Assembly (NCBI GenBank): GCA_021229015.1
Contig: CM037777.1
Span: forward strand, 53,017,554-53,081,553
DNA length: 64,000 nucleotides
Reading direction: 5' to 3'
Source: Solen grandis
Taxonomy: Eukaryota; Mollusca; Bivalvia; Adapedonta; Solenidae
Shown in pieces: positions 23,391 to 56,560 of this stretch. Both the position numbers and the translations under genes were made by a program. The notes under the pieces were generated by a model. It made no database searches. It saw only the letters and a list, made by a program, of their open reading frames with translations, and was not told where the DNA came from. Every line of letters begins with the position of its first letter. Positions within the stretch are counted from its first letter, which is position 1.

Positions 23391-23663
23391 AACCTCTCTT
23401 TAAGACACCTCGGAATTAAGATCCCCTCGCTATCAATACAAGTCATTTTTGGAACCAAATAGTGTTGTCTTGTTGTGACTAGACAGGTAAAATTCACTAC
23501 AAAGACCACCTCGCTATTAAGACCACTTTTTACTGGAAGCGATCGTAGTCTTAGTATAGGTTAGTTCATAGTTGCATTCGTGTCGTGTAGTTGAAGGCAA
23601 CTATGAACTAACCTATTTAGCACATGGTATTTTCCTCCACTAGCGACAAAACGTCACAAAAGT
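23391..23663 (+). repeat. Left half of an older repeat that received the 7.8-kb element
   Basis: Contains CAGTAAAACCTCTCTTTAAG, resembling a mariner/Tigger-type end. Then comes a hairpin (GGTTAGTTCATAGTTGC and its reverse) and CTATTTAGCACATGGTATTT. The other half continues at 31,468. A related uninterrupted copy is at about 56,396-56,550. Confidence 0.65.
23655..23663 (+). repeat. Target-site duplication, left copy
   Basis: CACAAAAGT immediately before the first base of the left TIR, matched exactly at 31,468-31,476. The related empty site at 56,518-56,526 has one copy. Confidence 0.88.
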
Positions 23664-23689
23664 AGGTGTGTGAAGTTAGCGCGTAGATC

Positions 23690-24873
23690 GTAGATCGTAG
23701 ATCGAAACTATAACTAATTTTCTTTGTCGATCTGGGTCGTAGATCGTAGCTCAACCATTCAAATAAACCAAAATAAATGGTTGAGCTGGATCGTAGATCG
23801 TAGCTCTACTATTGAAAAGTTCACGGAATGGTTGAGCTGGGTCGTAGATCGTAGCTCGACCATTGAAAACTTTCATAAAAAATGGTTGAGCTGGATCGTA
23901 GATCGTAGCTCAACCATTGAAAAAGTTCACGGAATGGTTGAGCTGGGTCGTAGATCGTAGCTCGACCATTGAAATAAACCATTATAAATGGTTAAGCTGG
24001 ATCGTAGATCGTAGCTCGACCATTGAAAACTTTCATAGAATGGTTGAGCTGGGTCGTAGATCGTAGCTCAACCATTGAAAATGTTGATGGAATGGTTGAG
24101 CTGGATCGTAGATCGTAGCTCGACCATTGAAAACTTTCATAGAATGGTCGAGCTGGGTCGTAGATCGTAAAAAAAAATGGTTGAGCGTAGCTCAACCATT
24201 GAAAAAGTTCCCGACGGAAACTTTTCCGACGAATGAGATATTCCCGACAAGTACAAAGATTTTTTAAGGAAACTCCTTTCCCGACGAAAGCATTTTTTCC
24301 GACAAATGCAATTTTCCCGACGAGTACAAAAATCCCGACGAAGATAAAAATATTAACAAAATACAATTTTCACAACTAATACTAAATTCCCGACATATAA
24401 TTTTTCCCGACGAACAGAAAATTCCCCGACGGAAACTTTTCCGACGAATGAGATATTACCGACAAGTACAAAGATTTTGGACGGAAACTCTTTTCCCGAC
24501 GAAAGCAATTTTTTTTCCGACAAATGAATTCCGTGAACTTTTTCAATGGTTGAGCTACGATCTACGATCCAGCTCAACCATTTATAACATTTTCAATGGT
24601 TGAGCTACGATCTACGACCCAGCTCAACCATTTATTTTGGTTATTTCAATGGTCGAGCTACGATCTACGACCCAGCTCAACCATTCTATGAACATTTTCA
24701 ATGGTTGAGCTACGATCTACGACCCAGCTCGACCATTCTATGAACATTTTCAATGGTCGAGCTACGATCTACGACCCAGCTCAACCATTTATTTTGGTTT
24801 ATTTGAATGGTTGAGCTACGATCTACGACCCAGGTCGACAAAGAAAATTAGTTATAGTGTTGATTTACGATCT
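23690..24873. repeat. Fold-back satellite inserted in the left TIR
   Basis: The right TIR lacks this block, so it is an insertion. Arms of about 0.5 kb and 0.35 kb are inverted copies (ACTATAACTAATTTTCTTTG at 23,708 and its reverse at 24,840). Each arm is an array of units spaced about 50 bp. The unit is itself palindromic, running from AATGGTTGAGCT to AGCTCAACCATT around GATCGTAGATCGTAG. The centre (about 24,205-24,530) is a different array with CCCGACGAA and TTTTCCGACGAATGAGATAT. Short frames across it are repeat artefacts. Confidence 0.8.
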
Positions 24874-24903
24874 AAGTAGTATAGGCATCTCTTTAGGGTC
24901 AAG

Positions 24904-24965
24904 ACTGCGCATGCGCAGGAGTGACGTCATCAGATTATTTGCGCATGTGCGGCGGCCATATTGAT
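24904..24965. promoter_or_regulatory. Promoter-type motif cluster in the left TIR
   Basis: Within 60 bases lie GCGCATGCGC (NRF1-type), TGACGTCA (CRE/ATF) and GGCGGCCATATTG (YY1-like). A short array of GACATCATGATCTATA units follows to about 25,060. Because it lies in the TIR it is duplicated at 31,345-31,410. Confidence 0.5.
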
Positions 24966-25718
24966 TTTCTATATTTAGAATGACATCATGATCTATAGTT
25001 AGAAATGGCATCATGATCTATATTTAGAATGACATCATGATCTATAGTTAGAAATGACATCAATGTACAGAGTTGTACATTTGACCTAGGGCTAAGGAGA
25101 TTGAGGGTCAAGTCTTAGGCGGAGACACATGGTAAACAAAAAGTACATGAGATACAACAGAGGTATTGATAGTCCCAATGATATACAGAGCTGACTTGTA
25201 TATTCACATAAGGCTTAAGGACGGGGGGGAAAAAAAAAAATGATCATCATACAATAAACATACAATATATAAAACTATATTAAACAATATTTGGAACATA
25301 CTTTTTGAACATACCTGTACACTTTACTTCAACACAAAACGGAAATAAAGATCAAATTTTCAGAATTCAGACGTGTGATGAACACACTTTTTGAACATGT
25401 CTGTACACGTTATTTCAACATAATGACACGAATATTGAAATCATTTAAAGCAGGTTCCAGTACATTTCATAATCACATACACTGTGACCTATATACCAAC
25501 AGAAAGAAAAACATCTTACCTATCATACATGAATACGTTTTACTTTGAATCTGGAGTAACACACTCCATTTGTTAAATTCTCTCTCTCTCTCTCTCTCTT
25601 AATTTCTGTAGAGTTTGTATATGATTATATAAGCACATTCTCATACTTAAACTTGTATCAAATTTAATGAAGTACATGAGCACGTACATGTATACATGTA
25701 CAACTGAATGTTCATGTT

Positions 25719-25750
<32 letters not shown>

Positions 25751-26779
25751 GTGATATACCATATTAAGTCAAAGTATTTCCGGTAATTATTCTTGGAAAT
25801 GTATTTCCAGTATACAACTAGAGTAAACCAGAGATAACTGGTTTACAATTTGAACCGACCAATGCCATGTCTTCATTTTATATCGATTGAACAAGTCTAG
25901 ACATGTTGTCTAAAAATAACCATGACTTAGATCAACAACCAATCAGAAACGAAATGTAGTATTACAACCATCTTTCATGCCATGAATTGGCGCGACATTG
26001 CACAACAACCAGCAATCATTTTTACTCCATGAACCTATGAGGCGTACACACACACACACGCACGCTATTCAAGCAAAATCATAGAATGCGTTCATGTTTC
26101 TGGAAATGAAATGGACATGTTGAATAAGGTAAACTTTTTAATTTATAAATCACCTACCTTTTTTCCTCAATATCCAATTTTATATTACACAACAAAATTT
26201 CTAAAAATGTTAATTATATCCATTTTTTTCGAAATCAAAATCCCTTGAACTGATCATTCCCAAAGTATTCACAGAAAGAACGAAATTGTCAAATGTTTGT
26301 ATAAAAATGTTTAAAGATGTGTTGGAAGATCAATAATCCAATATTATGGATAGGATTGAGCCACTTGATTTTAACTTAAAACACATGTTTATATTTAATC
26401 GATATAATGCTGGAGTGGACGTGCGAAACAGCTGCGACCTGTAATCAAAAAGTCATTAACTCTTTCAGTTTATTAAAATCTATTATTTATGATCCTAGGT
26501 TAATTTTAAAATTTTATTATTTTGATATTTTAAAACTCAATTTTTTTATATTGTTTTAGTGCAAATCAAGTCTAAATACATGATTTATATATATCATATC
26601 AGTATTTTTTTCTCACTAATATTGAGTCATTTGAGCATACAAATAGTAACTAGATTCAAAATAAATCTGTTGATTTGATTTTCAATCGAATTAGTTGTCA
26701 ATTATCGATTTCATTGATTTCCCATTTTTTTAAAGAGTCGGTTGTTTTGAGGATCCTATTGTCAAAGAAAACAAACACA

Positions 26780-27003
26780 TTTTAATCTGTTACTCATTTT
26801 ATTTTGCAATACAATTCGTTTTCACACATTTTCTGTTCTACAATTATACAAATTCTAAACTGTTACTTATTTTATTTTGCAATACAATTCGTTTTCATAT
26901 GCACACATTTTCCGTTCTACAATTATACAATTTAAATTTTTTTTTTTTTTTCAATACAAATCGTTTGAACATGCACACATTTTCTGTTCTACAGTTATAT
27001 TGT
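26780..27003 (-). repeat. Three tandem units of about 80 bp downstream of the element's genes
   Basis: CAATACAATTCGTTTTCA ... ACACATTTTCTGTTCTACA is repeated three times with small changes, ending just after the stop codon of the 27,012-27,320 gene in its reading direction. This is probably 3' untranslated sequence. Confidence 0.7.
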
Positions 27004-27011
27004 CCTTAGTC

Positions 27012-27320
27012 TCAAACATAGAAGGTTGAATTGGCCGGAATTCCTGGTGGTCGAAATCTTTTGTTTGATTTTACAGGGGAACTCATATTCTGACGTTTCA
27101 TGGAAGTAGACTTTCTTTCCCTAGGTGGAGAGTCTTGTCTCTTGAGTTCTGACTTGGCCATTTCTACCGCTTGTGCCACAGGGGTAACATATTGAATGGT
27201 CGGTTCTTTAGACGTGCCACCAGTCTGTATTTTTTCTACCACATAGTGTCCTTTGTGATTAGGACGTAGTTTTCCCTCGGCCATGAGGCGAAAATGTTGT
27301 GACCAACTGTCAATGTTCAT
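27012..27320 (-). CDS. Small basic protein of the 7.8-kb element, 102 aa
   Basis: Intact frame from ATG 27,320 to the stop at 27,012. The N-terminal half has SWSQHFRLMAEGKLRP and a hydrophobic-acidic segment, TPVAQAVEMAKSELKR. The C-terminal third is strongly basic (KSTSMKRQNM, KSNKRFRPPG). I do not recognise a named family. The size, the basic tail and the place beside a packaging ATPase suggest a DNA-binding or minor virion-type protein, which is inference. It is the only gene of this element without a visible lesion and shares orientation with the ATPase gene, 44 bases downstream of its stop. Confidence 0.65.
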   Translation of the reverse strand: MNIDSWSQHFRLMAEGKLRPNHKGHYVVEKIQTGGTSKEPTIQYVTPVAQAVEMAKSELKRQDSPPRERKSTSMKRQNMSSPVKSNKRFRPPGIPANSTFYV

Positions 27321-27364
27321 TATTAGTTTTTGTTAATTTCTATTAGTCTTCTCCCCTTATAAAC

Positions 27365-28994
27365 TTATTCATCATCATCATCATCACTAGATTCCGAATC
27401 TATCTCTCCGTGACCAATGACCTCATCGAACCAATGATTGTACTTTTTCAATACTCGTTTAATCACTTTCTTTTTATTGTCTGAATCCAAAATTTCTCGA
27501 AGAATTTTCTGATGAACGACGCTTCCTTCTAGTTGAGCCGCTGTTCTCAAAAAATCTGTATACATTCGCATGAATTCTTTTTTATCGTCTTCAAAGACAA
27601 ACTCATAGGCTTTTGAACGGGCTTTCTGTTCTGAGTTTCCTTCATTTCTATATTCGTAGTATTTTTCATCCCAAATTGTTTCCGTTTTCTCACCAGCTTT
27701 TTTGGCTAAGGATTCGAAATATTCATTTATGTCTTCAATGAAGTCTTGTTCATCCATAGAACTTTCATTATCAGAACCATCATCGCAGGTGATCCAATCT
27801 CGACGGCCTACTTTACTCGTAGGCTCATCTTCATTACTAGTATGTGCAGCTTTTCTTTTCAACACCGCTGGACACCATGCTCTGGCATGTTTTTGTAAGT
27901 TACTAATGTCCGAAAACATAGAACCGCAGTCGTCGCAAGAAATCATGATGTTTTGCAAAGTTTCGACTGGAACAGTATCCTGTCTCTGTATATCGTTTGG
28001 TGGTTCCATTGTACAATCTGTTTCCCTTATAAATTCCATCACATTTGTGCGCATGCGTAGTGAAGCCGGTGTAAGTGGCTTTAAATCTACGAGTAAATAG
28101 CCATAGGGATGACTAACAGCCTTTTCAAAAGGTCTTAACAGTTCTTTGGAGTTACTGGGTACATTTGTCGGGCAAAAGTCATAACCTGTTGCCTGTCTAC
28201 AGGGTTGTTAAATAATACCAGATAATGGCAATTTCGTCTCTGGGTAGGATCTTTCCTGAAATACAGGTTTTGGTTGAGAGCGATGACAGACAGATTTCTA
28301 TGGTGGCTACCTTCCGTGAATAAATCGGTCACTCATTGGTCTTTCACCGCTTCCGTAGCCATGTCGTCTAATATGATCACATTTCTGACTCTAGGGTCCA
28401 AAAACTCATCTTTTTCCAGATTAAAGGTACTCCTTTTTTGAATTCTACTTCCGGAAAAACGTTTCTTTGTATTTCGTCATATAACGGTTGCCATCTCTTG
28501 TATAACCAGATAATACGTTGTGGAGCGGGACGAAGTTTTTCATAAGCCCTCTGTAGTAGCTGTGATACGAAGTAAGTTTTACCACAAGAGGTCGGTCCGC
28601 TGACCATACACGTAAAGGGATGTTGAAAAACAAATTCCTGTCCATTAGTTAATGTTGAAGGAGGTATTTCCCTAACTTTCTTTTGTGTCTGTACTCCCTG
28701 AAATATTGAACCTCCTCCTTGAGGAGGAGAAAGAGGATGAATTCCTCCTCCTTGAGGAGGAGGAGGAGGAGGAGGAGGAGGAGTCAATTTCGGAGGAGGA
28801 GGCGTCAATTCCGAAGGAGGAGGAGTCAATTCCGAAGGAGGAGGAGTCAATTCCGAAGGAGGAGGAGTCAATTCCGAAGGAGGAGGCGTTTCATTGACTG
28901 TCTTTTCATTTCCATGTTTAAATGCACAATGTCTTAACAAATTGTCCCTTCTTGTGAATACTTGTTTACACTCTAAACACTTTATAGAAAACAT
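27365..28994 (-). pseudogene. Zinc-finger / packaging-type ATPase, with frame breaks
   Basis: ATG at 28,994 gives a C2H2 finger at once (CLECKQVFTRRDNLLRH). About five PPPSELT heptads and a poly-proline stretch follow, then a P-loop ATPase with Walker A GPTSCGKT (about residue 120) and an IIWLYKRWQPLYDEIQ block. The frame shifts near 28,415. Walker B (NVIILDDMA) follows, then an in-frame TGA at 28,333-28,335. FTEGSHHRNLSVIALNQN and LVLFNNPVDRQQ continue the ATPase. A second frameshift near 28,133 enters the frame ending at 27,365. That part has HPYGYLLVDLKP, a second zinc finger (CDDCGSMF...HARAWC) and an acidic tail. The ATPase belongs to the broad A32/FtsK-HerA-like packaging group by motif layout. 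Confidence 0.72.
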
Positions 28995-29184
28995 GTTTTA
29001 TGAACTGAAAAAGGAGGCACTTCCCCTTATAAGTTTTTATAAGTCCCAAGACTTTGATCCTGTTTGTTCTTATATTAAACAGGCTTCACACATCTCTAGA
29101 TACAGCTCTGAAAATCCCTCGTCAATGTTCACGACATTGCCCATCTCATAGGACAAGATTTTCATATGTTTTTTTATACCCTCG

Positions 29185-29412
29185 AAGTTCAAACTAATGA
29201 AGATAGAATCATTTTTACATAGAATGACGTCATTTCCGGTTTTTATTCATCATGGACTTCCGGTTAATAGTATTCAAAGTATAGATCTCACTTTGAGCTT
29301 TCCATAGCTATAAAAAATATTCAAATCGGATAACAACTAAGGGAGATAGAGTCATTTTTTACATGTGATGACGTCATTTCCGGTTTTTATTCATCATGGA
29401 CTTCCGGTCCGA
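29185..29412 (-). promoter_or_regulatory. Duplicated CRE-ETS block upstream of the ATPase gene
   Basis: A unit of about 75 bp occurs twice (about 29,192-29,268 and 29,342-29,410). Each has ATGACGTCATTTCCGG, a perfect CRE next to an ETS-type TTCCGG, then TTCATCATGGACTTCCGG. It sits 200-400 bases upstream of the minus-strand start at 28,994 and inside the right TIR edge. This fits a promoter or enhancer for the element's genes. Confidence 0.5.
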
Positions 29413-30472
29413 TTTATTTTGAATCTAGTTACTATTTGTATGCTCAAATGACTCAATATTAGTGAAAAAAAATACTGATATTTGTATGATATATATAAAA
29501 TCGATAAATAATCATGTATTTAGACTTGATTTGCACTCAAACAATATCAATAAACTGTTTTCTGAAATCAAAATAACAAAATTCATTCATTTAATCAATG
29601 TTTATACTTATATTCGAATGATATTAGAATTTTAATAAACTGAAAGAGTTAATGACTTTTTGATTACAGGTCGCAGCTGTTTCGCACGTCCACTCCAGCA
29701 TTATATCGATTAAATATAAACATGTGTTTTAAGTTAAAATCAAGTGGCTCAATCCTATCCATAATATTGGATTATTGATCTTCCAACGTTGACACGGTTC
29801 CCTGCACTTTCGCCAGGATTATATCGATTAAACATAAACATGTGTTTTAAGTTAAAATCAAGTGGCTCAATCCTATCCATAATATTGGATTATTGATCTT
29901 CCAACACATCTTTAAACATTTTTATACAAACATTTGACAATTTCGTTCTTTCTGTGAATACTTTGGGAATGATCAGTTCAAGGGATTTTGATTTCGAAAA
30001 AAATGGATATAATTAACATTTTTAGAAATTTTGTTGTGTAATATAAAATTGGATATTGAGGAAAAAAGGTAGGTGATTTATAAATTAAAAAGTTTACCTT
30101 ATTCAACATGTCCATTTCATTTCCAGAAACATGAACGCATTCTATGATTTTGCTTGAATAGCGTGCGTGTGTGTGTGTGTACGCCTCATAGGTTCATGGA
30201 GTAAAAATGATTGCTGGTTGTTGTGCAATGTCGCGCCAATTCATGGCATGAAAGATGGTTGTAATACTACATTTCGTTTCTGATTGGTTGTTGATCTAAG
30301 TCATGGTTATTTTTAGACAACATGTCTAGACTTGTTCAATCGATATAAAATGAAGACATGGCATTGGTCGGTTCAAATTGTAAACCAGTTATCTCTGGTT
30401 TACTCTAGTTGTATACTGGAAATACATTTCCAAGAATAATTACCGGAAATACTTTGACTTAATATGGTATAT

Positions 30473-30519
<47 letters not shown>

Positions 30520-30635
30520 AACATGAACATTCAGTTGTACATGTATACATGTACGTGCTCATGTACTTCATTAAATTTGATACAAGTTTAAGTATGAGAA
30601 TGTGCTTATATAATCATATACAAACTCTACAGAAA

Positions 30636-30680
<45 letters not shown>

Positions 30681-31467
30681 TAACAAATGGAGTGTGTTAC
30701 TCCAGATTCAAAGTAAAACGTATTCATGTATGATAGGTAAGATGTTTTTCTTTCTGTTGGTATATAGGTCACAGTGTATGTGATTATGAAATGTACTGGA
30801 ACCTGCTTTAAATGATTTCAATATTCGTGTCATTATGTTGAAATAACGTGTACAGACATGTTCAAAAAGTGTGTTCATCACACGTCTGAATTCTGAAAAT
30901 TTGATCTTTATTTCCGTTTTGTGTTGAAGTAAAGTGTACAGGTATGTTCAAAAAGTATGTTCCAAATATTGTTTAATATAGTTTTATATATTGTATGTTT
31001 ATTGTATGATGATCATATGTTGATTATTGATTTAAGATTTTGTATAGTCCCCGTCTAAGGCTGAGGACCTGACCCTCAATGTCCGTGATTAAGCCTTATG
31101 ACTGAATATACAAGTCAGCTCTGTATATCATTGGGACTATCAATACCTCTGTTGTATCTCATGTACTTTTTGTTTACCATGTGTCTCCGCCTAAGACTTG
31201 ACCCTCAATCTCCTTAGCCCTAGGTCAAATGTACAACTCTGTACATTGATGTCATTTCTAACTATAGATCATGATGTCATTCTAAATATAGATCATGATG
31301 CCATTTCTAACTATAGATCATGATGTCATTCTAAATATAGAAAATCAATATGGCCGCCGCACATGCGCAAATAATCTGATGACGTCACTCCTGCGCATGC
31401 GCAGTCTTGACCCTAAAGAGATGCCTATACTACTGATCTACGATCTACGCGCTAACTTCACACACCT
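29403..31467 (-). repeat. Right terminal inverted repeat
   Basis: Reverse complement of the left TIR. It has three private differences: a tandem duplication of about 105 bp (about 29,700-29,800 and 29,820-29,910), an AG microsatellite expanded to about 46 bases at 30,630 (about 20 on the left), and about 75 bases near 31,010-31,085 absent on the left. Confidence 0.85.
31345..31410. promoter_or_regulatory. Promoter-type motif cluster in the right TIR
   Basis: Mirror copy of 24,904-24,965 with the same NRF1-, CRE- and YY1-like strings in reverse order, bases unchanged across the core motifs. Confidence 0.5.
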
Positions 31468-31631
31468 CACAAAAGTGTGAGTTATGAGGTTGCATAGTCC
31501 ACACTTATTGATTTTTCACACACGTGTGGACTACGCGTTATAGTCCACGGTGACTATGAACAAATAAAATACTAGCATCTGATTGGACGAGAGGAAAATA
31601 CCATGTGCTAAATAGCGAGGTTTAACTGTAT
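31468..31631 (+). repeat. Right half of the older host repeat, starting with the target duplication
   Basis: Begins with the second CACAAAAGT. It has a hairpin (TAGTCCACAC...GTGTGGACTA), then AGGAAAATACCATGTGCTAAATAG, an inverted match to 23,617-23,640, and ends with AGCGAGGTTTAACTGTA. Confidence 0.65.
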
Positions 31632-33011
31632 GTGATAGTTGCCAAACCGTCTAGTTGTTTAAACCTTCGTCATATTTGAACAAGTGAATGCAAACAACAA
31701 AACTTGCTATTTTCAGAAATTAAGCAATACATGTGCCGATGACGCACCAGGAGTTCAATGAACTTAACTTCCAATTAGCGATCAGTTCATTCAAGATAAA
31801 ATTGACGTATCCTTTTTAGTCGTGTTCGTCGAAAACTTTATCAGGAACCAAAACACTTGATGCCATGTTAATCATGTCCAAGAGTATCAGTATGCAATTA
31901 TCATTCCCGGGAGGCAGACAGTTATCTGGTATTTTTATAGTTTATATGCACAGAGATATGTCAACGTTTGACTACCCCTGTCACTACCACCAATCACCTT
32001 GCAACTCCGGTCGTGAACCTTGCTGTAGGACTGTCGAAAGTCTTACCNNNNNNNNNNNNNNNNNNNNNNNNNNNNNNNNNNNNNNNNNNNNNNNNNNNNN
32101 NNNNNNNNNNNNNNNNNNNNNNNNNNNNNNNNNNNNNNNNNNNNNNNTCCTCTAAATATTTTTCCTGAAACGAATAAATACAAACCGTAGGCCGATACAT
32201 CATCATGTTCACTGTTTTAATATTTACGAATATGATAATCTACATGAATGTGTACTCGTGGTCTCTTTATAAAGAGACACTGGTCTATCTTAAATGTATA
32301 AATAAACATGAATATGAAATGAAAGAATTTGAAAATTTTAATCTGCCATATTTTGGGACAATCCATATTTTGGGACAATGTGTATGTAGATTATGCATGA
32401 TCATTAATTCAAATCATATCCAGGTAATCAGTCATTGAGCAATGCTACTGTGATAAGTCGATGAATACGAAATACTAATGCACAGAAAACACAATTTATG
32501 TGCAAAATAAAACGGATATTAAGGATTTTATATTAAATATCAACATCTTTTATTACTGAATATTGTTTGTTTTGTCACTGATTTAACATTTATTTGGGAA
32601 GTCTGTGTGTGAAGGCTGCTTCCAGATCGACAATTAGACAGTCAAGATTACCAAGTTCGAACCTAATACAGCATATACCCGGTATTCCCTTCAACATATT
32701 TGACAAAATATGTTTAAAATGTTTTTTTCCTCAGATTTAAACAAAACTGTCTTTTACAATGCTGAGTCCAAAACTGATGACTCTTCAAAGAATTCACTAA
32801 TTGACAGTGTACACAAGTCACTTTTTTTCTTTTTTGTGGGGTGGGGGATTGGGTGGATCCAAAAAGCACTTATTATTTTTTATGCCAATCTGCCCCCCCC
32901 CCCCCCCCTTTACTACCGTCATTTTTTTAAATACAACTGTAGTCAAAACTATTTCACAGTAATTATTCAAAACATGCTTTGCGAAGGTAAAATATATAAT
33001 TATATCGCTCA
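31632..33011. other. No gene seen; includes a 100-N gap
   Basis: AT-rich. Frames across 31,865-32,212 run through the N gap and mean nothing. Poly-C tract at about 32,893-32,908. Confidence 0.45.
32048..32147. other. Assembly gap (100 N)
   Basis: Exactly 100 N. Confidence 0.99.
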
Positions 33012-35366: not shown

Positions 35367-35680
35367 TGTAGCGCCGTTAAATGTCGCACCACCGTTAAAT
35401 GGCGCAACTCACGTTAAATGTCGCTCTGTTGCCGTTAATGTCGCTCTCACCGTTAAATGTCGCAAAACAAGCTCACGTTAAATGTCGCACCTCTAACGTT
35501 AAATGTCGCAAAAAATCGAGGTCACGTTAAATGTCGCACCATCAACGCTAAATGTCGCACATTTCTATATACACTCTAATGTAAATTTTATGTTATAAAT
35601 TTGGACCCTCATTGGCGGATCGACTTGTTAACCTTCTCTGCATAGGGTTCGAATCCCGAGCGGGAATATGACTTCTATGG
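35367..35680 (+). repeat. Left TIR of the 9.3-kb element
   Basis: The outer 200 bases hold about nine copies of (A)CGTTAAATGTCGCA spaced 15-30 bp. The inner part, matched more weakly at the other end, includes CGACTTGTTAACC and a tRNA B-box-like GGGTTCGAATCCCGA at about 35,646. Confidence 0.82.
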
Positions 35681-37109
35681 TTGCTAATTCAACCAATGTG
35701 TCTTTTCGCATCTTCGTGGCGTTTAAAAAATGTTTCTATTTACCTGACGGGCCAAATTCCATTCCCTAAACATTTGGTGTATATTTTAACGCCCTTTCTT
35801 CCGACTATGTTTGTTACATTCGTTTGATTTTAAGTCAGATTTTTTTTAATTTTCACTACTAAACATGTTCATCATAACGATATAGGTATCTTTAATGTAA
35901 AATAGACAGAAAATCCTTGTATAAGTTATGATTAACTTGTTTTAAGATGTTATGCCTGCCTACGTATCATTTGTATTTTTTTTTTCGAGATGTTATCAAA
36001 AGCAAAAAGCTATCTTTTACTTTTTCTTAATTAGTTATGCATCGTAGTTTGTTTAAGCGACCGTAAATTAAATAAAAGTGTCGCTTTCTTAGAGGTATTT
36101 ATCGCTCGTATTGTGTGTGCGTCGGTATTGATAATAAGCTGTATATGAAGATGCATTAGAAAGTTGTAACAAGGGGTTAAAACTGGCTATATTCTGTTAC
36201 ATCTATATTAGAAAATTATGGTTTTATGTATGAGAAAAGAGAGAAAATGTGTTTTGCGTAATAGAAAAGATATAGAGGACTAGTATAATTTTAATATATT
36301 AATATGCGGCAAATGTAGGGCATTTATAAAACAGAATCATTACAAATACCCAAGTATTACCAAGTTAGTTGGATTACTGAACTGTTCAAATAGGAAATCA
36401 TAATCGAATCTTGCAAAATATATGACAAAAGCAACTCTATTAAGATGCGAATTGTTGATATAACTTCTGTGTATGCTGTTGTATAATCATAATCACAACT
36501 AGTAGTCGTAGAGTTATGCATATGTAATTATGTATACATATTTGGTAATTTTTTTTTCTTCTTCTTTTCTCTAAATTTCGTTTCGTTAGGCATAAGAGGG
36601 AGAGCAATATATGGCACTTGAATATACCGTATCCTACAATATTTCTAGTTTTTTCCAGGAAGATATTATGGGACATGGATATTTTTTATTTCGCGAACAA
36701 AAGCAATATATTGTAGCTTTATACTGACAACTATATCACATTGTACGTGTGTGTGTGTGTGTGTGTGTGTGTGTTTATACCATATGCGTATCGATGTTGA
36801 TAAGTTTTCATATAGAAAATAAAAAAAATCATTAAAGAATTATGTTTTAAATAGTGATATCAGTGAGGAGCTAACGAGAAAAGTATTGATGTCGATTTGA
36901 GTTAATATGTTCATAATAGAGATAGTAGTGAATATCCATTCTCCATATCATTCATGACCAAGGTATTAAGTTTGATCACTTACTAGTACGCGAAACTGTT
37001 GGTGAAGATAGAAGTGGGAATGATGAAGTAGATGAGAGAGTGAGTTGGAGAGAGTTTTGTTTAAGGTCACGTGAGTAATTTGTGAAATATATTTATTATG
37101 TATTGAGTT
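35681..37109. other. Inside the 9.3-kb element, no gene seen
   Basis: AT-rich, with a GT microsatellite at 36,746-36,772. No coding region or family motif recognised. Confidence 0.45.
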
Positions 37110-37365
37110 CCGTTACGGCGACGTCATGGTTAGAACATCCGTCCTGAACTCGCGAGGTCGGAGGTTCGATCACTGGCCGCAGCATACCAAATTCTTTAAA
37201 ATGGTATTGATTTAGCGCTCAACACTAAAATCTGATTGCCCGGTGCCATTATAATGTAAATAGGTGTCATATCATGAATTGTCCTATTCATTGATAATAG
37301 TCAATAAAGAAGGCAAACTATCTGCCCTGAACACGAATTTAGCTGCGAAAATCGGCACACACACA
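37110..37365 (+). repeat. SINE related to family B
   Basis: The tRNA-like head has B box GGAGGTTCGATCACT. Then come GCAGCATACCAAA and a TTGCCCGGTG motif as in family B, with a CA-repeat tail at 37,355-37,376. It is more diverged than the copies at 18,036 and 20,325. Confidence 0.6.
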
Positions 37366-37739
37366 CACACACACACGTTATCAACAACAAGTGTAGTACT
37401 AAACTTTTATTTTTCTTTTCTGACTCAAAATATAATCATATAACCCCATGTTTCTACATAAACAAACGTGAAAATCAGGCAACCAAAATGAATATCGTAC
37501 ATTTGCAATAAGTAAGCTTTACATAAAACAAAATGTTAATAATTAAAAATTAATAAACAAAAACAAAAAAATCAATGCGGTGGTATATGGCGAACTGGCT
37601 CGATACCCAATTATTGTTCATTTAATTAAATACTGATTTAATATAATGTCAGCAGAAATATGATTTTTAAAACAATGTTTACCTATACTCTTGATAGACC
37701 TTCAAAAAGGAAATGAAAACTGGTTAAAAAGGTAAAACA

Positions 37740-37930
37740 ATAACTATCTAATCAATATTATCTATCTAATCTATATTATCCATCTAATCTATCTTATCTA
37801 TATAATCTATATGAAATATTTATTCTTTCTGATCTTCTTCTGTCTTATCTATCTAATCTATCTTATCACTTATCTAGCCTATCTATCTTATCTATAGTAT
37901 CTATCTGTCTATTTTTTCTATCTATAACAA
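37740..37930 (+). repeat. ATCT-type microsatellite
   Basis: Imperfect repeats of TATCTATCTAATC over about 190 bases. Confidence 0.85.
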
Positions 37931-38367
37931 AAACATTTCGGCTGGATGCATAGAATGTGTATTGAACCAAGTAATAAATGAACATCAGGTCACGGCTTGC
38001 CCTCGTACGCCAATTCACGAAGCCATTGCGCACGTCATATGTTGTCAATGATTGTAAAACTTGACCAATCAACGATCAACAGCAAATAAATTAAGTATGT
38101 ATTATCATATTCAAATACACTCACGAAATTTTAAGATATTTAACTTATATTTAGTATGTTAATAGTTTCTATATTTGATGTAAGAACTACGTACATGTAT
38201 ATTGAACTTATCGGTGCTCTCATCAGTTAAATTAGACAACATGGTTGTATATACATCGAATAAATGGTATGTTAACTAAACATGGCTATTATTTTATATT
38301 AACAAAATGATGACTACATAGTAACTAATGATAACATAAACTTTGCCGTGTAATGTTGATGGCGTTT

Positions 38368-41300
38368 TTACCATACTCCTTCGATGGTATACCAGCCACA
38401 AAGTGAAGCCACCCGGAGAAAGAGCCAAGCATTTGCCCACGAGGAATTTGTTATCAAATTTCGTATTGCTTGAACTAACCCACTGCCACACCCAGCTATT
38501 CTAATAGTCTTCCTAACACTGATAGGAGACACGGACACGTCATGAAAAAGATCAGGGTTGAGATATAGACGCGGTGATGGTGTTTTGCTTACAACTTCTT
38601 CAAAAAATCTATTCACTCGTTTGAGCGAATATCTCGACATTGGATATTGTTTCAATACAATATTTAGGTTTTCGCCTCTGCAGGGCGAAAACCTATTGTT
38701 CTTCTTCTGTTGATTTGTTTTTTTTTTTATTTTTATTATTTTTCCAATTCCACCCATTTTTGTGTCCAGCCTAGCGGCCAGATGAAAAAAGCTACAGCTA
38801 TGAAATTTTGGGCATGGAGTCATCTTTATCTGAACATGTGCCTAAATGGTCAAACTTTTCAATTTTGTTTCTGATTTAGCCACTAGGGGGCGCAATGCAT
38901 GTAATCACTGTTTTGCTAATAACTCAAAAATTTGAAACCTGATTTAGATGCGGTTTTTTACATAATGTTCCTTGTTGACAGCCCAATCAAATATCATGGA
39001 AATCTCATCATCGAGTACGGGAAAAAAATTGTTCTAAGAGAGGTTGAATGTTCGAACCTTGGAAAAAAGTGAAATAATGAGGGTAGGTCTACGAAAAACC
39101 TTCTCACTTTTGTTAGAGATCAGATAGAAGAATTCTGTTTGCTGCATACGATTTGCAAGACATATACGCACAAAATATATGGGGTGGCGAATTTAGAAAA
39201 TGCGTGGTTTGTCCTCTAGAAAAGGTCAAACTTCACTAAATTTTAGGAAAAATTAAAATTTCAAAAACATGTTTTTGTCGCTCCTGACTTTATTTTCTGT
39301 TCATTCTTCATGATATTTTCACAAGTTATGTATTGTTATGTTTGAAAGGGCCTCACAATAAAAAATTAAAAGAAATTTGAAAAGGTCAAGGTCATATTAC
39401 GATTATTGTGTTTTTATTCGGCCACAAATAGCTCCAAAACTAAAAATATTTCATTGAGAGTATATGAACAAAAGTTTTAGTTCTTAAAGAGCTCTTTCCA
39501 GTGATGTTTAGTTTTTGAAGATCGGACTTGATTTGGTCATTATACGGCAGTCCAAAGTTTGATCCTTTTTTGGAATAATTGTAAATCAGGTTTTATGCTT
39601 CAAATTCTGATACACAAAAATAAAAAGTTTGACTTGTGCGACTAGTATACTTGATTGAACTATTTTCTGCTTTGCTAGGTACCAAACAGTAAAATTTTAA
39701 TCAATTTTCTATCTCATTTTGCCGCTAGGGGGCGCTTTTCTTGAAATCATTCTTTTGCTTATAACTCAAAAAGTTGAAGCCTGATCCAAATGCGGTTAAT
39801 TGAATTATGTTCCTTGTTGATAGCCTAATAAAATATGATAGTTTCTAGGTATGAGTGGCTGAAACTTTTTGAGCTAGTAACGGAAGGTTGAAAGTTCGAA
39901 TCTCTAAAAAAAACTGCAAATGAGGGTAGGTCTACGAAAAACCTATCCATTTTTGTTAGAAATCAGATAGAAGAATTCTGTTTGCTGCAAATGATTTGCA
40001 AGACATATACGCACAAAATATATGGGGTGGCGAATTTAAGAAATGCATGGTTTGTCCTCTAGAAAAAGGTCAAACTTCACTAAATTTTAGGAAAAATTAA
40101 AATTTCAAAAACATGTTTTTTTGTCGCTCCTGACTTTATTTTCTGTTCATTCTTCATGAAATTTTCACAAGTTATGTATTGTTATGTTTGAAAGGGCCTC
40201 ACAATTAAAAAGTTAAAAAACATTGAAAAGGTCAAGGTCATATTACGATAATTGTGTTTTTATTCGGCCCCAAAGTGCTCCAAATCTAAAAATATTTCAT
40301 TGAGAGTATATGAACAAAAGTTTTAGTTCTAAATAGTTCTTTCGTATAATGTTTAGTTTTTGAAGATCGGACTTGATCTTTTCATTTTACGGCAATCCAA
40401 AGTTTGATCCTTTTTTGGAATAATTGTTATTCAGTTTTTATGCTTAAAATTGTGATATATAAGAAAAAGAATGTTCGATTAGTGCGACTTATATACTTGT
40501 TTGAACTATTTGCTGCATTTCTAGGTACCTAATTGTAAAATTTTTATCATTTTTTTTCTCATTTTGCCGCTAGAGGGCGCTTTGCTTAAAATCACTCTTT
40601 TGCCTATAACTCAAAACGTTAAAGTCTTATTGAAATGCGGTTTTCAGCATTTTGTTCCTTGTTGACAGCACCACAGAATGTGATGTGATGTGATGATAGG
40701 GTATGGGGAAATATTTGCGCTAGAGGAGTTTGAATGTTCTAACATTCCAAAAAAAACCCCAAAAAAACTGTGCAAATGAGAGTAGGTCTTCAAAAAACCT
40801 TTGCGTTCTGTTTCATATTAAAAATTGTGGCTGAGTTGAAATAAAGTGTTCAAGTTGATTAGGTTAAAAGCGAAAACCGAGATACCGCTTGCGGTTCTAG
40901 TTTTTATTATTTTTCCAATTCCACCCATTTTTGTGTCCAGCCTAGCGGCCAGATGAGAAAAGCTACAGCTATGAAATTTTGGGCATGGAGTCATCGTTAT
41001 CTGAACATGTGCCTAATTGGTCAAACTTTTCACATTTATTTCTGATTTAGCCACTAGGGGGCGCAATGCATGTAATCACTCTTTTGCTAATAACTCAAAA
41101 ATTTGAAACCTGATTTAGATGCGGTTTTTTACATAATGTTCCTTGTTGACAGCCCAATCAAATATGATGGATATCTTATCATCGAGTACGGAAAAAAATT
41201 GTTCTAGGAGAGGTTGAATGTTCGAACCTTGGAAAAAAGTGGAAAAATGAGGGTAGGTCTACGAAAAACCTACCCACTTTTGTTAGAGATCAGATAGAAG

Positions 41301-43143
41301 AATTCTGTTTGCTGCATACGATTTGCAAGACATATACGCACAAAATATATGGGGTGGCGAATTAAGGAAATGCGTGGTTTGTCCTCTAGAAACGGTCAAA
41401 CTTCACTAAATTTTAGGAAAAATTAAAATTTTAAAAACATGTTTTTGTCGCTCCTGACTTTATTTTCTGTTCATTCTTCATGAAATTTTCACACGATATG
41501 CATTGTTATGTTTGAAAGGGCCTCACAAATAAAAAAATTGAAATGGTCAAGGTCATATTACGATTTTTTGTTTTTATTCGGCCACAAATAGCTCCAAAAC
41601 TAAAATTATTTCATTGAGAGTATATGAACAAAAGTTTTAGTTCTTAAAGAGCTCTTTCCAGTAATGTTTAGTTTTTGAAGATCGGACTTGTTTTGGTCAT
41701 TATACGGCAGTCCAAAGTTTGATCCTTTTTTGGAATAATTGTAAATCAGGTTTTATGCTTCAAATTCTAATACATAAGAAAAAAAGTTTGACTTGTGCGA
41801 CTAGTATACTTGATTGAACTATTTGCTGCTTTGCTAGGTACCTAACAGTAAAATTTTAATCAATTTTCTTTCTCATTTTGCCGCTAGGGGGCGCTTTTTT
41901 TTAAATCATTCTTTTGCTTATAACTCAAAAAGTTGAAGTCCGATTCGAATGCGGTTTTTTGCATTCTGTTCCCTGTTGATAGCCTAATAACATATGATAG
42001 GATTCGAGGGTCCGTGTGGCTGAAAGCTTTTGAGCTACGGAAGGTTGAATGTTCGAACCTCGCAAAAAAAAACAACAAAAAAAAAAACTGTGCAAATGAG
42101 GATAGGTCTACGAAAACCCTATCTGTTTTTGTTAGAGATCAGATAGAAGAATTCCGTCTCCGGTATACCATTTGAAAGACGTATACACACAAAATATATG
42201 GGGTGGAGAATTTAAGAAATGCGTGGTTTGTCCACTAGAAACGGTCAAACTTCACTTAAATTTAGGAAAATTAAAATTCCAAAAACATGTTTTTTGTCGC
42301 TCCTGACTTTATTTTTGTTTATTCGTCAAGAAATTTTCACACTTTATGTTTTGTTAAGTTTGAAAGGGCCTCACAATTAAAAATTTAAAAAAACATTGAA
42401 CAGATCAATGTCATATTACGATAATTGTGTTTTTATTCGGCCACAAAGTGCTCCAAATCTAAAAATATTTCATTGAGAGTATATGAACAAAGGTTTTAGT
42501 TCTTGAGGAGCTCTATCCAGTGATGTTTAGTTTTTGAAGATCGGACTTGATTTGTTCATTTTATGGTAGTCCAAAGTTTGATCCTTTTTTGGAATAACTG
42601 TTAATCAGTTTTTATGCTTCAAGTTGTGATATATAAGAAAAAGAATGTTCGTCTAGTGCGACTTATATACTTGTTTGAACTATTTGCTGTTTTTGCAATT
42701 TTGTTTCTAATTTTGCCGCTAGAGGGCGTTTTGCTTAAAATCACTCTTTTGCTTATAACTCAAAACGTTAAAGTCTGATTGAAATGCGGTTTTTAGCATT
42801 TTGTTCCTTGTTGACAGCACCACAGAATGTGATGGATTTCAAGGGACAGGGTATGGGAAAATATTTGCGCTAGAAGAGTTTGAATGTTCTAACATTGCAA
42901 AAAAAAAAAAACTGTGCAAATGAGAGTAGGTCTTCAAAAACCTTTTCGTTTTGTTTCATATTGAAAATTGTGGCTGAGTTGAAATAAAATGTTCACGTTG
43001 ATTAGGTTAAAAGCGAAAACCGAGATACCGCTTGCGGTTCTAGTTATTATTATTCTCCAAATCTCCGGTGGAAGTTCTAGGTGATTTTTCTTAGCATGTT
43101 TCGGGTTTCTTTTTAAATTAATCATTTTACGTAACTGTTTCAT
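38368..43143 (-). pseudogene. F-box-like gene split by a 4.4-kb insertion
   Basis: ATG at 43,143 encodes a basic N-terminus and then ELPPEIWRII, a typical F-box start. The frame is then cut by the repeat element at about 43,042. On the far side (38,667 down) it resumes with NIVLKQY and SRYSLKRVNRFFEEVV, which fits the second half of an F-box, and continues about 80 residues to TAA at 38,368-38,370. Total about 130 codons. F-box proteins link substrates to SCF ubiquitin ligases through Skp1. The start is only 61 bases downstream of the OTU gene's stop, on the same strand. The break makes it non-functional unless the insert is spliced out. Confidence 0.6.
38669..43042 (+). mobile_element. Hairpin-ended tandem-repeat element, 4.4 kb
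   Basis: Starts with a perfect short hairpin (AGGTTTTCGCC...GGGCGAAAACCT) and ends with a second (ACCGCTTGCGGT) then TCTAGTT. Between are two tandem units of about 2.15 kb (38,725-40,900 and 40,905-43,040). Each is made of roughly 840-bp subunits sharing TAACTCAAAA, ATGCGGTTTT, TGTTCCTTGTTGA and GTAGGTCTACGAAAAACC. It encodes no protein. The F-box reading frame on both sides locates the ends within a few bases. The architecture matches the 6,685 and 45,277 elements although the sequence does not. Confidence 0.75.
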
Positions 43144-43203
43144 GTGGAATTCAAAGGAACGATTACTACTAACGTTAGCATGTGAGTCACCATCGTTATA
43201 ACA

Positions 43204-44118
43204 TCATTCATTATCATCAGTCATCTGCGAATTCGGTTCGTTGATATAAGAACTAACTTTGCTCTGGTTCGATTCATTATCGTCAGTATCATTGGGAATA
43301 TCGTTAATATCAGGGTTAATATCATTGATGATGGTGTTAGTTTTGTTAGTGTGAGAGTTTATTTCGCTGATGATCAAATTCGTATCAGTTATATCTTCTG
43401 TGCTATGCTTGGTGTCAGAGACAATAGCAAGGCTTGAATCTTGAGCCTCCCATGTAATCTGGGTTGATCTTTCTATAAGGTCTTCAAGCATTTCTCTGTC
43501 GTATCCAAGAGCAACATAATGCTCGCCAGCGCCCTCTGGGCAATGTCCCAATATCATAATAGGGATGTCGGTCGACAGGGTAGAGCTGCCATCAGGACTG
43601 ATTAAAGTCGTAGCACTATTTAAAGTAGAAACGACAATGATTTGTACATTATAAAGTTGGGACATGGTCTGTAACGTTATTTGATCACCATATTCATAAT
43701 TTCTTGACATGCGAGACAAATATAATTGTGGATGAACCAGAATTGAATTCCACCAATTTTCGCTTAGCATAATATTTCCAAGTGAGGGTGTTTGTCTCAA
43801 AAATGTAACTACTTCATGTCTCAATGTTTCTTCGGATCTGTATATCCCATACTGGCGAAGTTGGTGTGATACCGCCGCAAACTGACAGTTTCCATTCCCA
43901 GTACGGTTAAATGTGATGGGTAGTGCAAATTCCGACCTTAGGTTCTCGATTCGAGATGATTTTGTTAATGGTATGTAATACTGCTTTCGGTGCAACCGTT
44001 TTCTGCTAAGGTTAGTCGCTGGCGTATACTGTGTGATGTCCACTGGCTTGTACACCAGTTTGACTGTATATTTATCGCCGAGTAAAAGTGGGGTACACCA
44101 ATTACCATAATTAACCTT
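43204..44118 (-). CDS. OTU-like cysteine protease, partial or spliced
   Basis: The OTU core is clear: the catalytic-Cys loop TGNGNCQFAAVSHQL (about 43,905-43,860), a middle region ending in QIIVVST, and the catalytic-His strand GEHYVALGYD (about 43,530-43,500). These enzymes cleave ubiquitin or similar chains. About 90 residues rich in N, D, S and T follow the domain, to the stop at 43,204. No ATG begins the frame: the stretch upstream of 44,055 is open to a tRNA-like sequence at 44,118, and codon 44,055 is GTG. The true start is therefore on another exon or lost. Confidence 0.78.
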   Translation of the reverse strand, partial: KVNYGNWCTPLLLGDKYTVKLVYKPVDITQYTPATNLSRKRLHRKQYYIPLTKSSRIENLRSEFALPITFNRTGNGNCQFAAVSHQLRQYGIYRSEETLRHEVVTFLRQTPSLGNIMLSENWWNSILVHPQLYLSRMSRNYEYGDQITLQTMSQLYNVQIIVVSTLNSATTLISPDGSSTLSTDIPIMILGHCPEGAGEHYVALGYDREMLEDLIERSTQITWEAQDSSLAIVSDTKHSTEDITDTNLIISEINSHTNKTNTIINDINPDINDIPNDTDDNESNQSKVSSYINEPNSQMTDDNE

Positions 44119-44205
44119 GTTATGACGCGGCCGGGGATCGAATCCACGACCTTCCGATTAAGGGACGGACTCCAAACTTCCCGGCCAACAGACCGATATT
44201 TAATA
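44118..44205 (-). repeat. tRNA-like SINE head beside the OTU gene
   Basis: On the minus strand it reads as a tRNA-like unit with TTGGCCGGGAAG (A box) and GGTCGTGGATTCGATCC (B box), directly upstream of the OTU frame. Confidence 0.55.
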
Positions 44206-44394
44206 ACTGAATGAAAGTGAAACTCTAAAAACCAACATATGTTCATTGTTCTGAGGTAAGTATGTTGCTTCGGTTTGATTTTGATGTGTCAATCACTTAG
44301 ACAAAAACGATGTCAAGCTTTTAAAATAAGAAGTAGAATACATAAGACCCTAGATGCAAAAGAGACACATGGATTGATTCAGCGACTGTGGAAT

Positions 44395-44699
44395 CCAAAT
44401 GCCCCGACCAGGATTTGAACCCTCTGTAGAGAGGGTTAACAAGTCAACCCCGCAAAAGTGGGTTAAAAAATATAACAAATTTAATATAAGAGTGTAAATT
44501 AAGAAGTGCGACATTTAGCGTTGATGGTGCGACATTTAACGTGACCTCGTTTTTTGCGACATTTAACGTTAGAGGTGCGACATTTAACGTGAGCTTGTTT
44601 TGCGACATTTAACGGTGAGAGCGACATTTAACGGCAACAGAGCGACATTTAACGTGAGTTGCGCCATTTAACGGCGGTGCGACATTTAACGGCGCTACA
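44395..44699 (-). repeat. Right TIR of the 9.3-kb element
   Basis: Outer about 190 bases (44,505-44,699) match the left TIR nearly base for base in reverse. The inner part has the inverted equivalents of GACTTGTTAACC and the B-box-like GGGTTCAAATCC. Confidence 0.82.
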
Positions 44700-45276: not shown

Positions 45277-46212
45277 AGGGCCATAATGGCCCTGGATCGC
45301 TCACCTGGTATCATTAGGCTATGTAAAATCAAGTGACCCCTGGTGCAGGGTCAATTTTGACACAAGGGCCATGATTTGAACAAACTTGGTAGAGGTTTAC
45401 TGGCCCATTTTACATGCCAAATATCTAAACTCCAGGCCTTGTGGTTTCTGGCGAGAAGATTTTTTCTAATTTTTTTTTCCTTTATAAGTCTACGTAAAAT
45501 AATGTGACCCCTGATTCGGGGCCAATTTTGATCCCTGGACCATGATATGAACAGACTTGGTAGATGTCAACTAAGCCATGTTACATACTAAATATCTAAA
45601 CTCCAGGCCTTGTGGTTTCTGACAAGAAGATTTTTCTATTTGTTTCCCAATATTAGCCTATGTAAACCAAGTGACCCCTGGGGCGGGACCAATTTTGACC
45701 CCAGGACCATGATTTGAACAAACTTGGTAGAGGTCTACTAGGCCGTGTTACATACCAAATATCTAACCACCAGGCCTTGTGGTTTCTGACAAGAAAATTG
45801 TTCTAGTTTTTCTTATATAAGTCCATGTAAAATAAAGTGACCCCTTGGGACGGGGCAAATTTTTACCCCAGGGTCATGATTTGAACAAACGGGCTAGAGG
45901 TTTACTAGACAAAGCCACACACCAAATATCTAAGCTCTAGACCTTGTGGTTTCAGAGAAGAAGATTTTTTAAGATTTCACTTTTAACATCTTTTTTTAAC
46001 TCCTGTGGCCTAATTATGCAACAGACCGGAACCATTTGAAAAAAAATGTTATAGGGGATCACCTTAGGAACATTCTTGCAAATTATGATCACTTTCCCAT
46101 CAGTAGTTTCAGAGAAGAAGATTTTTTAAGTAAATTTTTGACGACTTACGACTCACGATGACGGACGACGGGCGTCGGACAAAGTCTGGTTCCAAAAGCT
46201 CAGGTGAGCTAA
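45277..46212 (+). mobile_element. Hairpin-ended tandem-repeat element, copy 2
   Basis: Same family as 6,685-7,984: the palindrome GGGCCATAATGGCCC, then TCGCTCACCTGGTATCATTA. About four monomers of around 168 bp with AAGTGACCCCTGG follow, then a GACGGACGACGGGCG stretch and the end AAAGCTCAGGTGAGCTAAAAA. It is shorter because it has fewer monomers. Confidence 0.8.
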
Positions 46213-56395: not shown

Positions 56396-56560
56396 TTATA
56401 GGTTAGTTCAAAGTTGCATTTAACTACACGATAAAGTCACGAGGGCGGGTAGGTAAAGGCAACTATGAACTAAGCTATTTAGCACATGGCATTTTCCTTC
56501 CACTAGAAACAAAACTTCACAAAAGTGTGAGTTATGTGGTTGCATGTGTTGCAAAGCAAC
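56396..56560 (+). repeat. Uninterrupted copy of the host repeat (empty site)
   Basis: Shares GGTTAGTTCA(A/T)AGTTGC, GGCAACTATGAACTAA, CTATTTAGCACATGG and GTGAGTTATG with 23,575-23,663 plus 31,468-31,500. It contains CACAAAAGT only once (56,518-56,526), where the 7.8-kb element is inserted in the other copy. Confidence 0.8.

What the first reader, a model, noticed from the sequence alone, without database searches (positions are those of the whole stretch)
23664..31467. A 7.8-kb long-TIR mobile element carrying a zinc-finger/packaging ATPase instead of a transposase
The ends, the 9-bp duplication and the 2-kb TIRs are read directly. The core has only a P-loop packaging-type ATPase fused to two zinc fingers and a small basic protein. 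That is a virus-type gene set in a Mutator-like frame (9-10 bp duplication, long TIRs), and I know no described family with this combination. It could be a defective integrated virus, a viral-transposon hybrid, or a non-autonomous member of an undescribed group.
Basis: partly seen in the sequence, partly recalled or inferred. Interest (0 to 1): 0.88.

Follow-up and report, generated by a model that had tools for sequence, protein, structure and literature searches.

The report
Compact Maverick derivative nested in transposon
What looked like one odd jumping gene is two nested ones: inside a common small transposon sits a stripped-down relative of Maverick virus-transposons without recognisable polymerase, integrase or capsid genes, whose family still keeps an unbroken DNA-packaging-motor gene in many copies, as a parasite of full-size Mavericks might.

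Summary
Partly right: ends, 9-bp duplication, long TIRs, zinc-finger ATPase and 102-aa protein are in the sequence, but two nested elements were merged. The outer (23,664-24,874 plus 31,435-31,467; TSD CACAAAAGT) is a common foldback transposon without recognised genes. The inner (24,875-31,434; 6,560 bp; TSD GATCTA; ends AGTAGTA) owns the long TIRs and both genes: a compact, non-autonomous Maverick/Polinton derivative. Its ATPase type is listed at 150 places in this genome; 33 of 150 keep stop-free frames of 499-539 aa (the window copy is broken). Among 30 end pairs (from the first 100 of 336 ends), 18 enclose this ATPase and none of these a listed PolB or penton; three longer ones (17.7-27.9 kb) enclose a penton, one also a listed PolB, none this ATPase. 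The full-size element read has a quite different ATPase. Substitution patterns suggest, modestly, purifying selection on both compact-element genes. Best reading: compact elements move with enzymes of full-size Mavericks and keep their own ATPase and basic protein because these serve them, probably in packaging; dependence and packaging are inferred, not shown. The Mutator-like hybrid reading is not supported.

The parts
23655..23663 (.). left copy of 9-bp target site duplication CACAAAAGT of the outer element
   Evidence: single copy at the empty target near 56,518-56,526
23664..24874 (.). outer non-autonomous foldback transposon, left part (tip AGGTGTGTGAAGTTAGCGCG..., inverted arrays of about 52-bp repeats)
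   Evidence: tip family of 865 matches genome-wide; its three listed ORFs have no Pfam match over cut-off
24869..24874 (.). left copy of 6-bp target site duplication GATCTA of the inner element
24875..31434 (.). inner compact Maverick-derived element, 6,560 bp, ends AGTAGTATAGGC.../...GCCTATACTACT
   Evidence: similar layout in other copies
24875..26667 (+). left terminal inverted repeat arm of the inner element; its first 1,714 bases are 84% identical (1,803 aligned positions) to the left end of the full-size Maverick C1:71857623-71876587
27012..27320 (-). intact 102-aa basic protein gene; the nucleotide sequence is identical in three other copies on other chromosomes
   Evidence: 85% identical over 60 aa to the 97-aa protein of a full-size Maverick
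27365..28994 (-). broken gene for C2H2 / P-loop packaging-type ATPase / C2H2 / acidic tail protein (two frameshifts and one stop); long ORFs 28377-28994 and 27365-28054
29411..31434 (-). right terminal inverted repeat arm of the inner element, with an internal duplication at 29,695-29,905
31435..31440 (.). right copy of GATCTA
31435..31467 (.). outer foldback transposon, right end (33 bp beyond the inner insertion)
31468..31476 (.). right copy of CACAAAAGT

Best explanation
SHOWN: a compact 6.56-kb element with Maverick-type ends, 6-bp TSD and two genes (ATPase, basic protein) inserted into a copy of an unrelated 9-bp-TSD foldback transposon. The compact element belongs to a large family in the same genome; it shares ends and about 84%-identical terminal sequence with a full-size Maverick that carries PolB, integrase, protease-like and penton-like genes, but carries an ATPase of another lineage. 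INFERRED: integrase and protein-primed polymerase of such full-size Mavericks recognise the shared ends and copy and insert the compact elements in trans. The compact elements keep their own ATPase and basic protein because these benefit the element that carries them, most likely by packaging its DNA into capsids made by the full-size Maverick, i.e. a satellite strategy. The window copy is a degenerate member: its ATPase is broken while its two arms are still nearly identical.
For: Nesting and both TSDs. 6-bp TSDs: in 8 of 8 compact elements (of 14 looked at) whose two ends were both in the letters fetched, and in the full-size element. Tip pattern taken from compact copies: 336 matches, 0 in control. 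30 end pairs among the first 100 listed ends (C1-C5): 18 with this ATPase (5,985-10,852 bp), 0 of 18 with a listed PolB or penton; 3 with a penton (one also a listed PolB), 0 of 3 with this ATPase listed; 9 with none. 0 of 150 listed ATPases within 15 kb of a listed PolB or penton. tblastn of ten proteins from full-size elements against the window element and the pieces of 13 other compact elements: only the basic protein matches, apart from two 23-residue integrase-like hits at E 0.001 in the window's arms. Full-size element: PolB, rve, BIR over cut-off, Peptidase_C5 just under it. ATPase relatives: Pox_A32/Adeno_IVa2. Compact-element ATPases are one clade apart from the type read at four other loci, two of them beside PolB, and from the family A type. 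Selection: changes shared by two or more of 23 copies 19 N/17 S against private 81 N/35 S (ATPase), 4/8 against 20/5 (102-aa); pooled Fisher p 0.005. Between-copy distance 7.1% in the first 350 bp of the ends against 0.96% in the ATPase.
Against: No test of dependence, expression or packaging. The selection signal is modest (ATPase alone p 0.07); copies are not independent; gene conversion could mimic it; in single close pairs nonsynonymous differences often outnumber synonymous ones. Only one full-size element with these ends was read at length, and it is itself damaged (split ATPase with a masked stretch, nested reverse-transcriptase-like ORFs). Lists from the genome search are truncated (150 of 5,185 candidates scored for the ATPase), so a full-size element carrying the compact type of ATPase could be missing. 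Only 3 of 12 family-A-like penton rows, and 3 of 23 PolB loci, on C1-C4 have a listed exact end within 25 kb (one of the 3 PolB loci next to a separate compact element), so the shared-ends claim rests on few full-size elements; for compact ATPases it is 24 of 46 within 6 kb. One compact copy (L020/L021) has arms 14.5% apart. 9 of 30 end pairs hold none of the genes looked for, so the ATPase may not be needed for movement.
Confidence: 0.55

Rival explanations
1. Plain deletion derivative: a former full-size Maverick lineage with this ATPase lost PolB, INT and capsid genes; the remaining two genes are passive remnants and the element is moved in trans.
For: Non-autonomous derivatives are usual for TIR transposons (established knowledge). 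9 of 30 end pairs carry none of the genes looked for. ATPases related to this type sit beside PolB at 2 of 10 further loci in the same genome, at one of them followed by an rve-like integrase, and, in mussel gene models, are joined to Peptidase_C5 or a chromodomain. The window copy is itself broken.
Against: 33 of 150 listed copies have open frames of 499-539 aa without stops, and shared substitutions are depleted in amino-acid changes. Passive remnants should decay in the copying lineage too.
Confidence: 0.33
2. Multipartite Maverick: the compact element is one genome segment and the full-size element another, each needed by the other.
For: Shared ends with non-overlapping listed genes.
Against: The full-size element read has its own C2H2+P-loop ATPase and its own basic protein; two of three other PolB loci checked also have a family-A-like ATPase just downstream, the third showed none in 3.5 kb. 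So the sets are not complementary.
Confidence: 0.04
3. A single Mutator-like or undescribed long-TIR transposon with viral genes.
For: 9-bp TSD and tips at 23,664 and 31,467.
Against: Outer tips often pair at about 1.2-2.3 kb elsewhere; a second TSD lies at the start of the long arms; the 13 other compact elements fetched have other flanks and no such tip with up to 5 mismatches.
Confidence: 0.01
4. The ATPase acts for the host or against other elements (for example interference with infecting Mavericks) and is kept for that reason.
For: Protist Maverick relatives are discussed as antiviral (abstract start of PMC12220804 in the listing).
Against: Many dispersed and decaying copies rather than one kept gene.
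Confidence: 0.05

Closest known systems
Maverick/Polinton elements (polintoviruses, adintoviruses)
   Same: 6-bp TSD, AG...CT ends, TIRs, packaging-type ATPase; ends and terminal sequence shared with a full-size element of the same genome
   Different: 6-11 kb instead of 15-20 kb; no PolB, integrase, protease, penton found; arms about 2 kb instead of 503 bp in the full-size element read; ATPase of another lineage
Virophages / mobile-element satellites such as phage-inducible islands (recalled, not tested)
   Same: small element with helper-like ends that would use a helper and carries its own packaging-related genes
   Different: no capsid gene found (unlike virophages); the helper would be a Maverick in an animal genome; no helper dependence shown
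Mutator-like elements / MITEs (outer element only)
   Same: 9-bp TSD, no recognised genes, high copy number
   Different: no transposase found in the window copy; superfamily not determined
Polintons without capsid genes (PMC4028283, passages read)
   Same: Polintons that lost part of the gene set
   Different: there, nine elements without MCP also lacked protease and ATPase; here the ATPase is what remains

Membership tests
Maverick/Polinton | 6-bp target site duplication (rve integrase typically makes 6 bp: PMC12220804, passage read) | tested here: met
   Window GATCTA; 8 of 8 compact elements with both ends read, window included, and the full-size element GTCATT
Maverick/Polinton | terminal inverted repeats beginning 5'-AG (recalled) | tested here: met
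   AGTAGTA ends, 336 tip matches
Maverick/Polinton | genome-packaging ATPase | tested here: met
Maverick/Polinton | protein-primed PolB | tested here: not met
   No ORF over 229 aa in 24,875-31,434; tblastn with a full-size PolB: no match in the window element or 13 other compact elements; 0 of 18 compact end pairs contain a listed PolB
Maverick/Polinton | rve integrase | tested here: not met
   tblastn with two integrases: none in 13 other compact elements; in the window only two 23-residue hits at E 0.001, one in each arm
Maverick/Polinton | penton and protease | tested here: not met
   tblastn with full-size penton-like protein and protease: no match in the window element or 13 others; 0 of 18 end pairs contain a listed penton. 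A protease family search of the genome did not complete
[quoted passage not shown]
   no MCP query was identified here; the window element has no ORF over 229 aa
Maverick/Polinton | 15-20 kb size (PMC4028283, passage read) | tested here: not met
   6,560 bp here; 5,985-10,852 bp in the 18 end pairs with this ATPase
Non-autonomous derivative of a Maverick | shares ends with a full-size element of the same genome and lacks its enzymes | tested here: met
Satellite of Mavericks | own genes kept by selection | tested here: inconclusive
   Shared changes depleted in N (pooled p 0.005), ATPase alone p 0.07
Satellite of Mavericks | depends on, and is packaged by, a helper | not testable with these tools
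   needs particle DNA or expression data
Mutator-like element | 9-10 bp TSD | tested here: not met
   For the gene-bearing inner element: 6 bp. The outer element has 9 bp
Mutator-like element | MURA-type transposase | tested here: not met
   8 of the 10 ORFs of 70 aa or more at 23,400-31,700 were scanned with Pfam: no transposase; the two not scanned are low-complexity frames opposite the ATPase linker

The most novel reading that the evidence does not exclude
A satellite of virus-like transposons inside an animal genome: a large family of compact elements that borrow polymerase, integrase and capsid from resident Mavericks, but bring their own packaging motor (of a different lineage from that of the Maverick with matching ends) and a basic, DNA-binding-like protein, so that their DNA is packaged in place of the helper's.
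Probability: 0.4. Interest if true: 0.85.

Novelty: new variant of a known kind. Interest (0 to 1): 0.6.

Why it matters
Mavericks are widely held to be endogenous viruses (e.g. PMC4028283, passages read), but direct evidence of how packaging works for them in animals is, to my knowledge, scarce. A high-copy partner that keeps only a packaging-type ATPase and a basic protein would be natural evidence that packaging is under selection in animal genomes, and would extend helper-satellite conflict to animal transposons. It also warns that a long-TIR element may be two nested ones.

Tried and rejected
Viral contig scans with two window proteins and two alignments: no relative. Scan of prokaryote genomes with A2 did not run for lack of a conserved stretch; with A3 it gave one contig, a symbiont MAG fragment with a bivalve-type ATPase, probably host contamination; pieces beside it look PolB-like to me from recalled motifs, but Pfam did not match. 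Solved-structure sequence search: no meaningful match. Foldseek of the ATPase model (mean pLDDT 70): none with E <= 0.001. PHROGs: only weak matches to families of unknown function. Rejected: one Mutator-like element; multipartite genome (see rivals). Paper searches for earlier reports: (open-licence library only); six exact phrases for non-autonomous or mini Mavericks/Polintons gave 0 papers. Papers: passages seen of PMC4028283, PMC12220804, PMC11071296, PMC11071308, PMC10294476; the rest only as search listings; PMC1450207 not held.
Full report
WHAT IS THERE. The long arms begin at 24,875 and end at 31,434, and GATCTA lies immediately outside each: the 6-bp duplication of an inner 6,560-bp element. 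Outside it lie 1,211 bp on the left and 33 bp on the right of an outer element flanked by CACAAAAGT. The outer target has a related copy in the window near 56,398-56,545 with CACAAAAGT once. The outer tip region has 865 matches genome-wide (36-base pattern, up to 3 mismatches; 0 in the control); among the first 100 listed many form pairs about 1.2-2.3 kb apart, a few are wider. Its three listed ORFs (74-124 aa) have no Pfam match over cut-off. The outer element is thus a common foldback transposon without recognised genes (superfamily not assigned) that was hit near its right end by the inner one.

THE FAMILY IN THIS GENOME. The window lies in a 1.32-Gb assembly (species not given; a bivalve by its relatives, inference). 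The ATPase N-terminal piece gave 239 matches from 150 scored candidates (5,185 in the first look); 150 places are listed, and 33 of these 150 have open frames of 499-539 aa without a stop. Thirteen further compact elements were fetched. In 12 of 13 the ATPase and 102-aa gene lie between inverted arms; in L029 only one arm and part of the 102-aa gene were found. Both ends lay in the fetched letters for 7 of these 13, and with the window copy all 8 have 6-bp TSDs (TTTGTC, TGTGTC, TTCTTT, ATCAAA, GTCCCT, AGGTTG, GGTATG, GATCTA). None of the 13 shows the outer tip with up to 5 mismatches in the fetched letters. tblastn with ten proteins of full-size elements (PolB, two integrases, protease, penton-like, BIR, TBP-like, two of unknown kind, basic protein) found only the basic protein in the 13, and in the window also two 23-residue integrase-like hits at E 0.001, one in each arm.

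FULL-SIZE PARTNERS. A pattern made from the compact ends gave 336 matches and none in the backward control (first 100 listed). These 100 form 30 pairs on C1-C5: 18 enclose the compact ATPase type (5,985-10,852 bp), none of them a listed PolB or penton; 3 enclose a penton (17,708, 18,965 and 27,865 bp), one of these also a listed PolB, none a listed compact ATPase; 9 enclose none (178-6,891 bp). Of 150 listed compact-type ATPases, 0 lie within 15 kb of a listed PolB or penton, 3 within 25 kb. Against this: on C1-C4 only 3 of 12 family-A-like penton rows and 3 of 23 PolB loci have a listed exact end within 25 kb, one of the latter beside a separate compact element; compact ATPases have one within 6 kb in 24 of 46. 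The 18,965-bp element, read in two separate pieces, has PolB (1,337 aa), rve integrase, C2H2+P-loop ATPase (split, partly masked), a 97-aa basic protein, a penton-like protein (named from recall; no Pfam match), a Peptidase_C5-like protease (just under cut-off), a BIR protein and a TBP-like protein, with nested reverse-transcriptase-like ORFs (named from recall). TSD GTCATT; its own arms are 503 bp, 97% identical; the window element's left arm matches its left end at 84% over 1,803 aligned positions, its right end only in shorter pieces. So both arms of the window element look like copies of one end of the full-size type; in the other compact elements compared the pieces are more mixed.

HYBRID MAKE-UP. 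The 102-aa protein is 85% identical over 60 aa to the 97-aa protein of the full-size element, but the ATPases share 44% over 50 aa, and 35-40% in two of three other PolB-linked loci (the third showed no ATPase in 3.5 kb). Ten further loci with an ATPase closer to the compact type were picked; 2 of 10 lie beside a listed PolB, at one of them an rve-like integrase follows (just under cut-off); none of the 6 on C1-C4 has a listed pattern end within 25 kb. Four of the ten were read. In the tree, compact ATPases form one clade (100/99) inside a group with Ruditapes, Mercenaria, Solemya and one unnamed protein (100/99); those four and family A lie elsewhere. Whether the other species have compact elements is unknown.

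DYNAMICS. In 27 of 30 pairs both ends carry the identical 28-mer, in 3 they differ by one base, although there are 22 variants; shuffles give 1.7 on average and never reach 27 in 10,000. One of the three full-size elements has exactly the same end as a compact one; the other two differ from the nearest compact end by 2 and 3 bases. The first 350 bp differ by 7.1% on average among eight compact elements, the ATPase by 0.96%; compact ends differ from the full-size end by 5.8-16.8%, within the range among themselves (2.0-16.8%); the two arms of one element differ by 0-3.3% in 6 of 7 and 14.5% in one. This fits ends copied from one another at each round and drawn from a pool shared with full-size elements (inference). 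In 23 compact copies, changes seen in one copy only are 81 N/35 S plus 7 stops (ATPase) and 20 N/5 S plus 2 stops (102-aa); changes shared by several are 19/17 plus 1 stop and 4/8; Fisher p for N against S 0.07, 0.010, pooled 0.005. This suggests selection in the copying lineages and decay after insertion, with the caveats of relatedness and gene conversion; in single close pairs N differences often outnumber S.

INTERPRETATION. Movement in trans by a full-size family's integrase and polymerase is well supported by anatomy, though not shown. That the ATPase and basic protein are kept for packaging is the best motive for their retention, but a passive-remnant reading stands. In the literature passages seen, nine Polintons without MCP also lacked ATPase and protease (PMC4028283); the present pattern is the reverse. 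Searches for non-autonomous or mini Mavericks by phrase found nothing in the open library, which is not proof of novelty.

Noticed in passing
window 35,367-44,699: Another long element: inverted ends TGTAGCGCCGTTAAATGTCGCA... with ACATC directly outside both ends (5-bp duplication), arrays of about 19-bp repeats at the ends, and an OTU-protease-like ORF at 43,204-44,055.
   Followed up: partly
window 6,991-7,744 and 45,319-45,970: Two tandem arrays with similar-looking units of about 163-167 bp.
   Followed up: no
L031:6405-6695 and 7039-7329: The full-size Maverick carries a BIR (inhibitor-of-apoptosis) domain protein and a TBP-like protein.
   Followed up: no
G000, PolB places: A large set of PolB copies with nearly equal scores, many with open frames of about 1,280 aa, and pentons of another type (32% identical, 434-aa frames) about 8 kb away at several of the same places, point to a second Maverick lineage, perhaps recently active.
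   Followed up: partly
L001 and P0092: A contig and a protein filed under bacterial MAGs (Thiodubiliella, Sedimenticola) hold bivalve Maverick-type ATPases, probably host contamination.
   Followed up: no
P0126, P0119: Mussel gene models join the ATPase to an adenovirus-type protease or to a chromodomain stretch, which suggests adjacency in full-size elements there.
   Followed up: partly
G000 end pairs without ATPase, e.g. C2:21008824-21014581: Nine of 30 paired ends enclose none of the genes looked for; contents not read.
   Followed up: no
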